Shown: positions 1-64,000 of the stretch, piece after piece | Numbering within the stretch: the first letter of the stretch is position 1 | Layout: each line of letters opens with the position of its first letter | Assembly (NCBI GenBank): GCA_902762785.1 | Contig: CACWPL010000008.1 | Coordinates: 18,186-82,185 of the forward strand | DNA from: an uncultured Ruminococcus sp. | GTDB taxonomy: Bacteria > Bacillota > Clostridia > Oscillospirales > Ruminococcaceae | DNA length: 64,000 nucleotides | Direction: 5' to 3' | The notes under the pieces: generated by a model | The model's database searches: none | What the model was told of the DNA's origin: nothing | What the model saw: the letters and a program-made list of their open reading frames with translations, nothing else | Made by a program: the position numbers and the translations under genes

Positions 1-1712
1 TCTACAATGCCGGTGACAACGGCATCCTCCTCTCCGGCGACAACAACATCATCGAGATGATGACGTTCAACGACAATGAGGACACCGGCCTCCAGATCTC
101 CCGCTACTCCGGCACCCAGGCCACCATCGACACCTGGCCGTCCAACAACCTCATCAAGAACTGCTCGTCCTTCAATAACTGCGACGAGGCGACCATGGAG
201 AACGCCGACGGCTTCGCGGCCAAGCTCACCTGCGGCCAGGGCAATGTCTTCGACGGCTGCTTCTCCTATAATAACTCCGATGACGGTTGGGATCTCTACG
301 CCAAGGAGGCCACCGGCCCGATCGGCGTCGTGACCCTCAAGAACTGCATCGCCTTCCGCAACGGCTTCACCACCGACGGCCGCGGCTATGGCGACTGCGA
401 CGGCAACGGCTTCAAGCTCGGCGGCGGCGGCATCGGCACGCGTCACATCGTGGAGAACTGCCTCGCGTTCGAGAACCTCAACTGCGGCTTCACCGACAAC
501 AACAACCCCGAGTTCGGTGACATGAAGAACTGCACCGCCTACAACAACAACCTCAAGGGCGCCAAGGCCAACTACATGGTATACCGCTGCTCCACCACCG
601 CGACCTTCACGGATATGATGTCCTATTACAACACGTCCAAGGTCTCCAAGACGAACATCTCCGCGATCAAGGAGGGCAACGACAAGTTCGTCGGCGCGTA
701 TACGAACGGCATCTACTACAACAGCAAGTATTACTATGCCGCCTCCAAGACGACCATGACCAACGGTGCCAAGCTCGGCGATGTCGTAACGCCTGGTGAC
801 GGTGACTTCATCACCCTGAACATTGCCGCCATGGGTGAGGATTTCCACAAGACCTGGCGTAATGCGGACGGCTCCCCTGCCCCGAAGGGCTTCGCGGAGA
901 CCGCCTCGAACAGCACCTATGCCAAGCTCGGCTATCACATGTACAACGGCGTTGCCCAGACGTCCACCCCGGCCATCGGCTCCGGCACGGTAACGCCCGG
1001 CACGGATGCCCCTGTCCAGACGACCGCTGCGCCCGTTCAGACGACCGCTGCGCCTGTCCAGACGACCGCCGGCCCGACCACGCCTGTCTCCGGTGACTAT
1101 GTCCACAACTTCACTGTGAACGGCAGCTCCAGCACCTTCTATACCATCGTGGGCAACATGAACTCCAAGCCCACCACGATCACCTGGAACGGTCTGACCC
1201 TCTCCCAGTGCCTCAAGCTGGAGTCCGCGACCGAGGTCTCCTTCAACGCGCCGGCAGACGGCACGCTGACCCTCGTGCTCGGCAATGCGACCGGCACGAT
1301 CAAGGTGAACGGCACCAAGTACACCGCCACCAACAACACTGTGACGGTCGATGTCAAGGCCGGTGCGAACACCGTCACCAAGGCGGATACGGATAACCTG
1401 TACTTCATGGCCTATGCGCCCGGCAACACGACCGCGACCACCGCAGAGACCACCACTACGACCGTGACCACCACGACCGTCGTTACGCCCACCGAGACCA
1501 CGCCTGGTGCCATCCTTTATGGCGATGCGGACGAGAGCGGTGTGCTCGACATCATGGACGTCATCGCGATCAACAAGAGCCTGCTCGGCGGTCTGACCCT
1601 CTCGGATCAGGGCAAGACCAACTCCGACGTTGACCGCAACGGTGCCATCGACACGACCGATGCCCTGAACATCCTCAAGGCCGTCGTCAAGCTCGTGACC
1701 CTGCCCGTCTGA
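1..1712 (+). CDS. Pectate lyase family PL9 with C-terminal dockerin (5' end outside window)
   Basis: The reading frame is open from base 3, so the start and signal peptide lie upstream of the window. Bases 3 to about 950 encode a right-handed beta-helix rich in Asn and Gly, with PL9-like blocks: DTGLQIS, ENADGFAAKL, DDGWDLY and DGNGFKLGG. PL9 enzymes cleave polygalacturonate by calcium-dependent beta-elimination. A TTAAPVQ repeat linker (about 1010-1080) leads to a beta-rich module of unknown class (about 1086-1420), a Thr-rich linker, and a dockerin (about 1513-1712) with two calcium-loop repeats (GDADESGVLDIMD and DVDRNGAIDTTD). The dockerin implies cellulosome attachment outside the cell. 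The dockerin is nearly identical to that of the PL11 gene ending at 22645. The family call is strong; the module call is not. Confidence 0.88.
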   Translation, partial: YNAGDNGILLSGDNNIIEMMTFNDNEDTGLQISRYSGTQATIDTWPSNNLIKNCSSFNNCDEATMENADGFAAKLTCGQGNVFDGCFSYNNSDDGWDLYAKEATGPIGVVTLKNCIAFRNGFTTDGRGYGDCDGNGFKLGGGGIGTRHIVENCLAFENLNCGFTDNNNPEFGDMKNCTAYNNNLKGAKANYMVYRCSTTATFTDMMSYYNTSKVSKTNISAIKEGNDKFVGAYTNGIYYNSKYYYAASKTTMTNGAKLGDVVTPGDGDFITLNIAAMGEDFHKTWRNADGSPAPKGFAETASNSTYAKLGYHMYNGVAQTSTPAIGSGTVTPGTDAPVQTTAAPVQTTAAPVQTTAGPTTPVSGDYVHNFTVNGSSSTFYTIVGNMNSKPTTITWNGLTLSQCLKLESATEVSFNAPADGTLTLVLGNATGTIKVNGTKYTATNNTVTVDVKAGANTVTKADTDNLYFMAYAPGNTTATTAETTTTTVTTTTVVTPTETTPGAILYGDADESGVLDIMDVIAINKSLLGGLTLSDQGKTNSDVDRNGAIDTTDALNILKAVVKLVTLPV

Positions 1713-1788: not shown

Positions 1789-1985
1789 GGGACACGCGGC
1801 GGCGCAGGGCGTGACTGACCGAAACGAAGTGGAGGGAGGTCTAGCCCTGATGCTTATGGAGCGGCCTGTCCCCCAAAGTATAACGGGGGGTATGGGGGGA
1901 CACGCGGCGGCGCGGGGCGTGACCGAACGGAGCGTAGCGTAGTGAGGTATAGCCCCGCGGCTTGTGACCGCCGCGTGTCCCCCCA
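1789..1985. repeat. Intergenic repeat: two direct copies plus an inverted copy forming a long hairpin
   Basis: A 27-base unit beginning GGGACACGCGGCGGCG occurs at 1789-1815 and 1897-1923 with one difference. A reversed copy ends at 1985, so 1892-1911 pairs with 1966-1985 at 19 of 20 positions. An inner pair, GCGGGGC (1912-1918) and GCCCCGC (1952-1958), extends the fold. No reading frame of note is present. The stretch separates the PL9 gene from the glycosyltransferase gene at 2007. Confidence 0.7.
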
Positions 1986-8436: not shown

Positions 8437-8513
8437 TGGTGTGCCTGACAGGACTCGAACCTGCGCTCTGAGGAGTCGGAGTCCTCTGTTTTATCCAACT
8501 AAACTACAGGCAC
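8437..8513 (-). tRNA. tRNA-Arg, anticodon CCG, CCA encoded
   Basis: The reverse strand folds into a full cloverleaf: acceptor GTGCCTG / CAGGCAC, anticodon stem GAGGA / TCCTC with loop CTCCGAC (anticodon CCG, reading CGG), and T arm GCAGG-TTCGAGT-CCTGT. The discriminator A and CCA are encoded at 8437-8440. A TTCGAGTC T-loop is standard. Confidence 0.95.
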
Positions 8514-49900: not shown

Positions 49901-49933
49901 AAGAGCCCGCCCCGGCAGTACGCTGGGGCGGTC
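49901..49933 (+). terminator. ldh-side hairpin
   Basis: CCGCCCC (49907-49913) pairs with GGGGCGG (49925-49931). Its right half, AGTACGCTGGGGCGGTC, recurs at 50133-50152. Confidence 0.65.
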
Positions 49934-49984: not shown

Positions 49985-50088
49985 CCCCTCACCCCCTGAC
50001 CCCCTCTCCCCGTCCGGGGAGAGGGGGAACGAATAGGTGGCCCTGCGGGCCACCGCCGCTTGTTCCACCGCCGATGGCGGCGGTGGAG
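49985..50088 (+). repeat. Three-hairpin intergenic element, copy A
   Basis: CACCCCCTG is followed by three hairpins: a perfect 13-pair stem (50000-50012 with 50015-50027), an 8-pair stem GGTGGCCC-TGC-GGGCCACC (50036-50054), and a stem in CCACCGCCGATGGCGGCGGTGG (50065-50086). GCCGCTTGTTCC links the last two. Copy B at 63895-63990 has the same order with compensatory base changes. Confidence 0.75.
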
Positions 50089-50120: not shown

Positions 50121-50155
50121 AACGACCGCCCCAGTATCACGCTGGGGCGGTCGTT
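50121..50155 (-). terminator. Terminator of the DUF4350-like lipoprotein gene
   Basis: AACGACCGCCCC / GGGGCGGTCGTT, 12 pairs, with a T-run on the reverse strand (TTGTCGG). Confidence 0.8.
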
Positions 50156-63717: not shown

Positions 63718-63753
63718 CGCCTCCCAATGCCGCTTGCGCGGCAAAGGGAGGCG
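63718..63753 (+). repeat. Nested hairpin downstream of coaBC
   Basis: CGCCTCCC (63718-63725) pairs with GGGAGGCG (63746-63753), and TGCCGC (63728-63733) pairs with GCGGCA (63738-63743). No reading frame of note occupies 63678-64000. Confidence 0.6.
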
Positions 63754-63829: not shown

Positions 63830-63858
63830 CGCGCCTCCTGTACGATACAGGAGGCGCG
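63830..63858 (+). terminator. Strong hairpin in the coaBC 3' region
   Basis: CGCGCCTCCTGTA / TACAGGAGGCGCG, 13 pairs, 150 bases after the coaBC stop. The T-run is missing, so it may be part of a repeat instead. Confidence 0.5.
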
Positions 63859-63894
63859 ATAGTCTGTCAAAAAAGTCGTTTTTCTAGGCGGCTT

Positions 63895-63990
63895 CTCCCC
63901 ACCCCCTGCCCCCCGCCCCCAGGGGCGGGGGGAGAAAATGGCGGCGCTGCGCGCCGCCGCCGCTTTTTCCGCCGCCTTACGGCGGCGGTA
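63895..63990 (+). repeat. Three-hairpin intergenic element, copy B
   Basis: CACCCCCTG, then an 11-pair stem (63909-63919 with 63922-63932), GGCGGCGC-TGC-GCGCCGCC (63940-63958), the shared linker GCCGCTTTTTCC, and a GCCGCC / GGCGGC hairpin (63971-63989). It matches copy A at 49985-50088. Confidence 0.75.
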
Positions 63991-64000
63991 TCAACAAGCG

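What the first reader, a model, noticed from the sequence alone, without database searches (positions are those of the whole stretch)
49985..50088. Dispersed three-hairpin element with compensatory changes (copies at 49985-50088 and 63895-63990)
Two intergenic stretches share the same sequence of parts: CACCCCCTG, a C-rich/G-rich stem, a second stem with a TGC loop, a linker that is identical at 11 of 12 bases (GCCGCTTGTTCC versus GCCGCTTTTTCC), and a third GCC-rich stem. In the second stem, T-A in copy A is C-G in copy B, and C-G in A is G-C in B, while the TGC loop is unchanged. Compensatory change suggests that the fold, in RNA or DNA, is what is kept. One copy is between convergent genes; the other follows coaBC.
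Basis: seen in the sequence. Interest (0 to 1): 0.72.

Follow-up and report, generated by a model that had tools for sequence, protein, structure and literature searches.

The report
Triplex-hairpin repeat carried by terminator-hopping transposon
Two look-alike stretches of DNA in a Ruminococcus-group genome are copies of a short repeat made of three hairpins, the first with a conserved DNA triple-helix signature, and one of them sits in a tiny jumping element of a kind that lands on gene-end hairpins and copies the whole hairpin as it lands.

Summary
Both copies are present, the stem differences compensate, and the repeat is common: 32 model matches in this genome (17 of them used to build the model) and matches in 17 of 36 congeners, but in 0 of 24 genomes of other families. 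In congener copies 21 of 25 pairs change on both sides.

Two things were missed. First, the leading C-tract plus stem 1 is a mirror repeat; copy A matches the E. coli BoxC/PIT/'TM' triplex consensus with a wider second loop. The third strand tracks the stem better than in 2000 shuffles. Second, copy B starts with an IS1182-family end. Such ends abut hairpins, and whole hairpins are duplicated as 17-39 bp direct repeats: 19 of 31 end pairs, 0 of 928 cross pairs. Seven of eight full-length IS1182 elements do the same.

IS1182 relatives are known to target hairpins, but IS1272 deletes them. Seven searches listed no paper linking triplex repeats to a transposon. Copy A has a decayed hairpin pair but no recognisable ends, and 84 of 101 congener copies examined lack ends, so the core also exists independently.

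The parts
49905..49933 (.). Left flanking hairpin of copy A (29 bp), likely decayed target duplication
   Evidence: 24 of 29 identical, in direct orientation, to 50124-50152 (counted by eye; 20 of 24); folds as a 10-bp hairpin, 2 of 200 shuffles as good
49985..49996 (+). Copy A: C-rich leader, complement of the triplex third strand (CCCCTCACCCCC)
   Evidence: Mirror of stem 1; minus strand 49986-50025 matches the TM pattern with widened second loop, 0 expected
50000..50027 (+). Copy A: stem 1, CCCCCTCTCCCC/GGGGAGAGGGGG
   Evidence: Fold; covariation in congeners
50036..50054 (+). Copy A: stem 2 with TGC loop
50055..50066 (+). Copy A: linker GCCGCTTGTTCC
50064..50087 (+). Copy A: stem 3 (its base overlaps the end of the linker)
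50124..50152 (.). Right flanking hairpin of copy A, partner of 49905-49933
   Evidence: folds as a 12-bp hairpin, 0 of 200 shuffles as good
63830..63858 (.). Terminator-like hairpin downstream of coaBC, left copy of the presumed target duplication of copy B
   Evidence: 13-bp stem, z -8.3; candidate partner beside the right end at the start of contig C17 (L043/L066), 27 of 31 identical by eye
63860..63888 (+). Left end of the IS1182-type element: T (other copies mostly C) then AGTCTGTCAAAAAAGTCGTTTTTCTAGG (63861-63888)
   Evidence: The 28-mer occurs 10 times exactly and 2 times with one mismatch in the genome; reversed-pattern control 0
63897..63906 (+). Copy B: C-rich leader, mirror of stem 1 with A at the interruption
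63909..63932 (+). Copy B: stem 1
63940..63958 (+). Copy B: stem 2 with TGC loop
63959..63970 (+). Copy B: linker GCCGCTTTTTCC
63969..63988 (+). Copy B: stem 3 (its base overlaps the end of the linker)
63989..64000 (+). Start of the right arm of the element, cut by the window and contig end; complete copies elsewhere end ...GGTTTTTCGACAAGCTG
   Evidence: 19 exact right ends in the genome

Best explanation
The repeat is a three-hairpin DNA element of the Ruminococcus group whose first hairpin, with its leader, is an intrastrand-triplex (BoxC/PIT/TM-type) motif. Copy B is cargo of a non-autonomous transposon (MITE, about 176-186 bp in complete copies) with IS1182-family ends. Copy A is the same core between two decayed copies of one hairpin, its ends no longer recognisable. 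Mechanism, step by step: (1) a transposase of the IS1182 family, supplied in trans, recognises CAGYYTGTCRAAAAA-like ends (inferred from shared ends; none found in this assembly); (2) it picks a DNA hairpin, often terminator-like, by structure and not by sequence (shown by the flanks); (3) the two strands are joined at the two feet of the hairpin, so gap filling copies the whole hairpin to both sides (inferred from direct repeats whose borders are the hairpin's feet; 'pathway b' that Wan et al. drew as a possibility); (4) the gene keeps a hairpin on each side, so insertion does little harm (inferred). In the core, natural copies keep pairing and third-strand mirror symmetry while the sequence changes, so the folded DNA is probably what is maintained (covariation shown; its role unknown).
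For: Ends. Hairpin pairs at individual loci. Hairpins of 7 or more pairs abut 17 of 19 right ends and 10 of 12 left ends, against 31% of random places; 10 or more pairs at 13 of 19 and 8 of 12. Direct repeats of 17 bp or more in 19 of 31 end pairs and 0 of 928 cross pairs. Full-length IS1182 elements (NF033551) with such ends and whole-hairpin repeats of 29-39 bp: 7 of the 8 whose two ends were recognised. MITE ends match those of L155 at 15-17 of 20 bases, except L108's left end at 10. G021 has an IS1182 element and core copies with both ends. Core covariation. Triplex mirror: 51 of 86 rows perfect, within-genome shuffles mean 32.9, maximum 41, and 0 of 2000 reach the observed mean score. TM consensus in copy A.
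Against: No IS1182 transposase in this assembly (0 matches; 92% complete, 62 contigs). 13 of 32 own copies and 84 of 101 congener copies have no IS1182-like end nearby, copy A being one of the 13. Of 30 end pairs, 12 have no repeat of 17 bp or more; some are false pairings, but L154, L169, L058 and L009 have different flanks on the two sides. ISCaa15, an IS1182-family element of Amoebophilus, is tabled with 4-bp repeats (PMC3196728, passage), so hairpin duplication is not the rule for the whole family. No empty site was compared. Alignments A2 and A3 were fitted to the model's structure. A plain rank correlation of the first interruption in stem and third strand is weak (rho 0.26, n 77), and the third-strand letter rule has exceptions. 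Holder et al. found no stable triplex in vivo (PMC4666352).
Confidence: 0.8

Rival explanations
1. A structured RNA (small RNA or 3' untranslated element); the ends are incidental.
For: Strong covariation, position after genes in the window. Below-threshold Rfam matches overlap the core in L037: CcsR1 at 23.1 bits (gathering 65.3, E 0.045) and ylbH leader at 22.5 bits (gathering 50).
Against: No Rfam family at its gathering score; the third-strand mirror fits a DNA purine-motif triplex; 19 of 32 own copies have a transposon end nearby. Transcription was not tested.
Confidence: 0.1
2. REP/BIME-like palindromes spread by a Y1 (RAYT/TnpA-REP) transposase.
For: Short hairpins in high copy; 84 of 101 congener copies examined have no IS1182 end.
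Against: Y1_Tnp (PF01797): 0 in this genome and in 6 of the 7 other core-bearing congeners tested; one partial match in G020.
Confidence: 0.05
3. The flanking hairpin pairs are not target duplications: two terminators of convergent genes became alike, or recombination between copies duplicated them.
For: Some loci have different flanks on the two sides.
Against: Left and right hairpins agree within a locus, loop included and in direct orientation, and differ between loci; 0 of 928 cross pairs. Seven full-length IS1182 elements, in this genus, in other genera of the family and in other families, show the same.
Confidence: 0.05
4. The core itself moves by another, unidentified route (for example copying at stalled forks); IS1182-type ends picked it up several times.
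For: 84 of 101 congener copies without ends; a row of six copies in L199; the triplex hairpin occurs in other phyla.
Against: Gives no mechanism; in this genome ends are near 19 of 32 copies. Compatible with the main explanation for copy B.
Confidence: 0.45

Closest known systems
IS1182 family: IS1272/TnSha1 (Furi et al. 2016 PMC4923244; Wan et al. 2017 PMC5678879; passages seen)
   Same: IS1182-family transposons choosing DNA hairpins, several of them terminators, without sequence preference.
   Different: IS1272 and TnSha1 remove hairpin sequence and make no duplication; here the whole hairpin is duplicated, which Wan et al. draw as a possible pathway. Here the element is a short non-autonomous form with structured cargo. 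Another family member, ISCaa15, is tabled with 4-bp repeats (PMC3196728, passage).
BoxC/PIT/TM intrastrand-triplex repeats (Holder et al. 2015 PMC4666352; outline, passages, one section whole and one in part)
   Same: Hairpin CCCTCNCCC/GGGNGAGGG plus a mirrored third strand; dispersed and high copy.
   Different: Followed here by two more conserved hairpins; near transposon ends in many own copies, whereas Holder et al. report no association with mobile elements in E. coli; loop 2 is up to 7 nt counted on their 9-nt arms (3 nt when the longer arms are counted).
REP/BIME and RAYT (recalled)
   Same: Short palindromic repeats.
   Different: No Y1 transposase match in the genome.
IS1634 family (long variable direct repeats; recalled)
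   Same: Variable-length duplications.
   Different: No match in this genome; repeats here follow hairpin borders.

Membership tests
IS1182-type MITE (copy B) | Terminal inverted repeats shared with IS1182-family transposons | tested here: met
   Left end in window; the right end is cut off. Complete own copies with the same left end match L155 ends at 16-17 of 20 bases
IS1182-type MITE (copy B) | Target duplication at insertion (whole hairpin) | tested here: inconclusive
   Left hairpin in window; candidate right partner on contig C17, 27 of 31 alike; seen in other own copies such as L010, L022, L070
IS1182-type MITE (copy B) | Transposase available in the same genome | tested here: not met
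   NF033551: 0 matches in G000; draft assembly, 92% complete. Not a bar for a non-autonomous derivative
IS1182-type MITE (copy A) | IS1182-type ends next to the flanking hairpins | tested here: not met
   None of the listed ends within 260 bp. Copy A is not filed as a member
BoxC/PIT/TM triplex motif (copy A) | Consensus CCCTCNCCC-N3-6-GGGNGAGGG-N3-GGGNGAGGG | tested here: met
   Minus strand 49986-50025 with N3 widened to N3-7; with N3 taken strictly on 9-nt arms it is not met
BoxC/PIT/TM triplex motif (copy B) | Same consensus | tested here: not met
   The only match in the window is copy A; mirror symmetry kept with A opposite the G interruption
BoxC/PIT/TM triplex motif | Forms a triplex in vitro | not testable with these tools
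   Needs CD/NMR on an oligonucleotide
REP/RAYT | Y1 transposase in the genome | tested here: not met
Known RNA family | Match at Rfam gathering score | tested here: not met
   Window: only a tRNA at 8440-8513; four loci down to E 1: five matches, none at its gathering score
IS1634 | IS1634 transposase | tested here: not met
   0 in G000

The most novel reading that the evidence does not exclude
Triplex repeats of the BoxC/PIT/TM kind are, at least in the Ruminococcus group, mobile cargo of structure-targeting IS1182-type transposition: the folded single-stranded DNA is both what the transposase lands on and what selection keeps, so the triplex helps the element move (for example by holding a strand open during replication), and the wide scatter of such repeats in bacteria has this kind of origin.
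Probability: 0.15. Interest if true: 0.85.

Novelty: new variant of a known kind. Interest (0 to 1): 0.6.

Why it matters
BoxC/PIT/TM repeats are known as stable triplexes in the test tube, without a link to mobile elements and without proof that the triplex matters in cells (PMC4666352). Here the third strand changes together with the hairpin in natural copies, the sort of evidence that has settled RNA structures, and some copies ride in an identifiable transposon. The whole-hairpin duplications also give natural examples of a transposition outcome that Wan et al. drew as a possibility: a transposon that spares terminators by copying them.

Tried and rejected
IS1634 as mobiliser: tested because of its variable-length repeats (recalled), 0 in own genome. 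REP/RAYT. Rfam. L064 as an autonomous copy: a lone right end beside a hairpin; a wider stretch (L103) was fetched but its ORFs were not searched against families; the IS1182 and IS1634 searches of G000 had no match. An exact own left-end pattern in genome contigs found nothing; that collection may leave out the own genome. Group IIC introns and attC sites: considered from memory because they also use terminators or hairpins, not tested. Right-end pattern with 3 mismatches: 42 places, no more than its reversed control (42); only the 19 exact ones count (the exact 15-mer control is 0 in G000).

Literature: seven searches of open-access papers, each listing 6-25 papers (searches matched more than they listed); no listed title or abstract start joins triplex repeats with IS1182 or reports whole-hairpin duplication. 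Five papers were opened: PMC5678879, PMC4923244, PMC3196728 and PMC10969869 (passages), and PMC4666352 (outline, passages, section 15, part 1 of 2 of section 20). Siguier et al. 2015 was seen only as cited in two of them; an ISfinder entry of 0-60 bp repeats for IS1182 is recalled, not seen.

Rows dropped: alignment A1 uses 17 of 20 extracted own copies (L022 and L049, with internal duplications, and the second L050 copy, without stem 3, left out). A3 was searched on 85 loci; L191, L199 and L206, present in A2, were left out, and only part of the congener matches was fetched. One search scored at most 72 candidates per genome and listed part of its matches, so counts are lower bounds; it held no same-family genomes of other genera. 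One search had 112 of 118 copies with a recognisable stem 1. One search's 30 pairs include false pairings.

Full report
What was claimed and what is there. The two stretches at 49985-50088 and 63895-63990 read as described. Each folds as three hairpins more stably than all 200 shuffles, and the two stem-2 differences compensate. Copy A sits between a lactate dehydrogenase gene and a convergent ORF without a family; copy B follows coaBC.

How common it is. A search of the window's own genome (G000, 2.82 Mb, 62 contigs, 92% complete) with copy A gave 49 BLAST matches at E up to 10, some of them the hairpin matching its own other strand. A covariance model built from 17 own copies matched 32 places in G000, those 17 included, and hit 17 of 36 other genomes of the genus but none of 24 genomes from other families of the order (at most 72 candidates scored per genome; other genera of the same family were not in that set). 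Two contigs of G004 have the lengths of SVNX01000001.1 and SVNX01000028.1, Ruminococcus sp. SIG550, so the genus is Ruminococcus or close to it. No Rfam family reached its gathering score; weak matches to CcsR1 and ylbH overlap the core in L037.

Is the fold what is kept? On the 17 own copies helix 2 is always paired and 4 of its 8 pairs have changes on both sides. On 41 and then 101 matches from congeners, 22 and 21 of 25 pairs show changes on both sides, 95.6% and 96.2% of cells are paired, and structures slid by 1-3 columns reach at most 63.9% and 65.0%. These alignments were fitted to the model, which favours the structure, but the size of the difference and the variety of pair types in stems 2 and 3 leave little doubt that copies keep the hairpins while the letters change.

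The first hairpin is more than a hairpin. Its C-rich strand is preceded by a C-rich leader that is its mirror image. Where stem 1 reads CCCCCTCCCC the leader is often CCCCACCCCC; where it is CCCCTCCCCC the leader is CCCCCACCCC in several copies; CCCCCTCTCCCC goes with CCCCTCACCCCC or CCCCACACCCCC; CCCCCCTTCCCC with leaders such as CCCCATCCCCCC; CCCCCCGCCCC mostly with CCCCACCCCCC. On the minus strand this is a hairpin followed by a G-rich third strand, mostly with T or A at the interruptions, as in a purine-motif (class II) intrastrand triplex. Mirror match was 0.923 (83 distinct copies) against a shuffled mean of 0.881 and maximum of 0.901 in 2000 shuffles. With shuffling only within genomes (86 rows, 16 groups, one of them loci whose genome I had not assigned) it was 0.925 against 0.894, maximum 0.914, with 51 perfect rows against a mean of 32.9 and a maximum of 41. 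The plain rank correlation of first interruptions is weak, 0.26 (n 77), since most copies share one type and registers are ambiguous. In copies with good mirror match, stem T was opposite A in 57 cells, T in 15, G in 4 and C in 1; stem G was opposite A in 6, G in 4 and C in 1. So the rule has exceptions. Copy A's minus strand fits the E. coli TM consensus of Holder et al. (PMC4666352) when the second loop may be up to 7 (0 expected). Copy B does not fit it letter by letter, but keeps the mirror.

The vehicle of copy B. Many own copies continue outward into fixed ends: AGTCTGTCAAAAAAGTCGTTTTTCTAGG on the left (10 exact and 2 with one mismatch, reversed control 0) and GGTTTTTCGACAAGCT on the right (19 exact; with 3 mismatches allowed the total does not exceed its control). 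The ends are imperfect inverted repeats. Of 32 own core copies, 6 have both ends within 260 bp, 4 the left only, 9 the right only and 13 neither. Several are cut by contig ends, and one 'neither' copy (L011) has slightly changed ends and a hairpin pair alike at 23 of 24. The exact right end of 15 bases occurs in 11 of 150 genomes searched; some of these matches lie in stretches that look coding and may be chance.

What lies just outside the ends. Many copies are bounded by two direct copies of one hairpin, and the hairpin differs from locus to locus. Examples are a 26-bp GC-rich hairpin at C1, 27 bp at C5, 20 bp at C25, and, across two contigs, a roughly 40-bp hairpin at C5/C57. Even an A/T palindrome is used. 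Hairpins of at least 7 pairs start within 2 bases of 17 of 19 right ends and 10 of 12 left ends, against 31% of random places under the same lenient test; 10 or more pairs occur at 13 of 19 and 8 of 12. An automatic search for end pairs in all loci then held gave 30 pairs, 18 of them with a direct repeat of 17 bp or more (17-39 bp). All 18 repeats are hairpins whose feet are the repeat's borders to within one base. Repeated with the loci fetched later, 19 of 31 true pairs and 0 of 928 cross pairs had such a repeat. Pairs without one include false pairings, loci with different flanks (L154, L169, L058, L009) and one (L029) whose hairpins are plainly alike but below the cut-off.

Which transposon. 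IS1634 was tested and is absent from this genome. IS1182 (NF033551) was found in 42 of the 150 genomes searched, over the family cut-off in 10, and not in G000. Eight full-length elements among the fetched loci had two recognisable ends; 7 of them sit between whole-hairpin repeats of 29-39 bp. MITE ends agree with those of the congener element L155 at 15-17 of 20 bases, except the left end of L108 from another genus at 10. The same genome (G021) holds that IS1182 element and five core copies with both ends nearby. The helper for G000 is missing from the assembly or from the genome.

What copy A is. It has the core and a pair of hairpins on its two sides, 49905-49933 and 50124-50152, alike at 24 of 29 bases in direct orientation, as expected for an old duplication. 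No IS1182-type end is recognisable. It is therefore a member of the core family, not shown to be a MITE.

The core also lives outside the transposon. Only 17 of 101 congener matches have an IS1182-like end within 160 bp, 8 of them both; random windows have one in 28 of 1263. In one congener the core is in a row of six (L199). The triplex hairpin occurs in records of Gemmataceae, Hyphomonadaceae, Chloroflexus and others, by eye mostly without the other two stems, and model matches in those records are weak or missing (E 1e-5 to 1e-3). So the ends carry the core in some cases; how the rest spread is open.

Comparison with what is known. Furi et al. (PMC4923244) and Wan et al. (PMC5678879) showed that the IS1182-family element IS1272 inserts into hairpins, several of them terminators, and removes hairpin sequence without duplication. 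Wan et al. sketched whole-stem-loop duplication as an alternative (passages). The pattern here is that alternative. A family member in Amoebophilus is tabled with 4-bp repeats, so the family is not uniform. Holder et al. report that the TM motif was not associated with mobile elements in E. coli, that single strands form a stable triplex, and that in vivo footprints gave no sign of a stable one. Seven searches of the open-access library listed no paper that joins the two; closed-access literature was not searched.

Verdict. Real, structured, common and partly mobile by an identifiable route. Shown: compensated stems, third-strand covariation, IS1182-type ends, hairpin duplication at many loci. 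Inferred: helper transposase in trans, joining at the hairpin's feet, sparing of terminators, any function of the triplex.

Noticed in passing
L199 (G004), 606-1581, minus strand: Six core copies in a row, about 170-182 bp apart; the unit also shows an end-like CTTGTCGAAAAAG and a GGGCGGTTCG stretch.
   Followed up: no
L108, L115 (G052); L110 and others (G002); L112 and others (G009): Other elements with the same IS1182-type right end next to hairpins but quite different hairpin-rich interiors.
   Followed up: partly
window 63720-63751; similar in L003 and L194: Another nested-hairpin repeat of the form CCTCCCAATG-hairpin-CAAAGGGAGG just after coaBC.
   Followed up: no
window 63860-64000 and ends of contigs C17, C18, C20, C42, C46, C55, C57, C58: The draft assembly breaks inside these elements; several contig ends can be paired by eye through their shared target hairpin.
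   Followed up: partly
L268 3108-3158 (Gemmataceae record): Two triplex motifs in inverted orientation sharing one stem, so both strands can offer a third strand.
   Followed up: no
L155 and L159, first 40 bases of the IS; L187 (G021): Full-length IS1182 elements have a subterminal hairpin right behind the end (AAAAAGTCCAG...CTGGACT); in the G021 MITE L187 stem 3 of the core overlaps this place.
   Followed up: no
window 1789-1858 and 1897-1966: Direct repeat of 70 bp, 80% alike, 108 bp apart.
   Followed up: no
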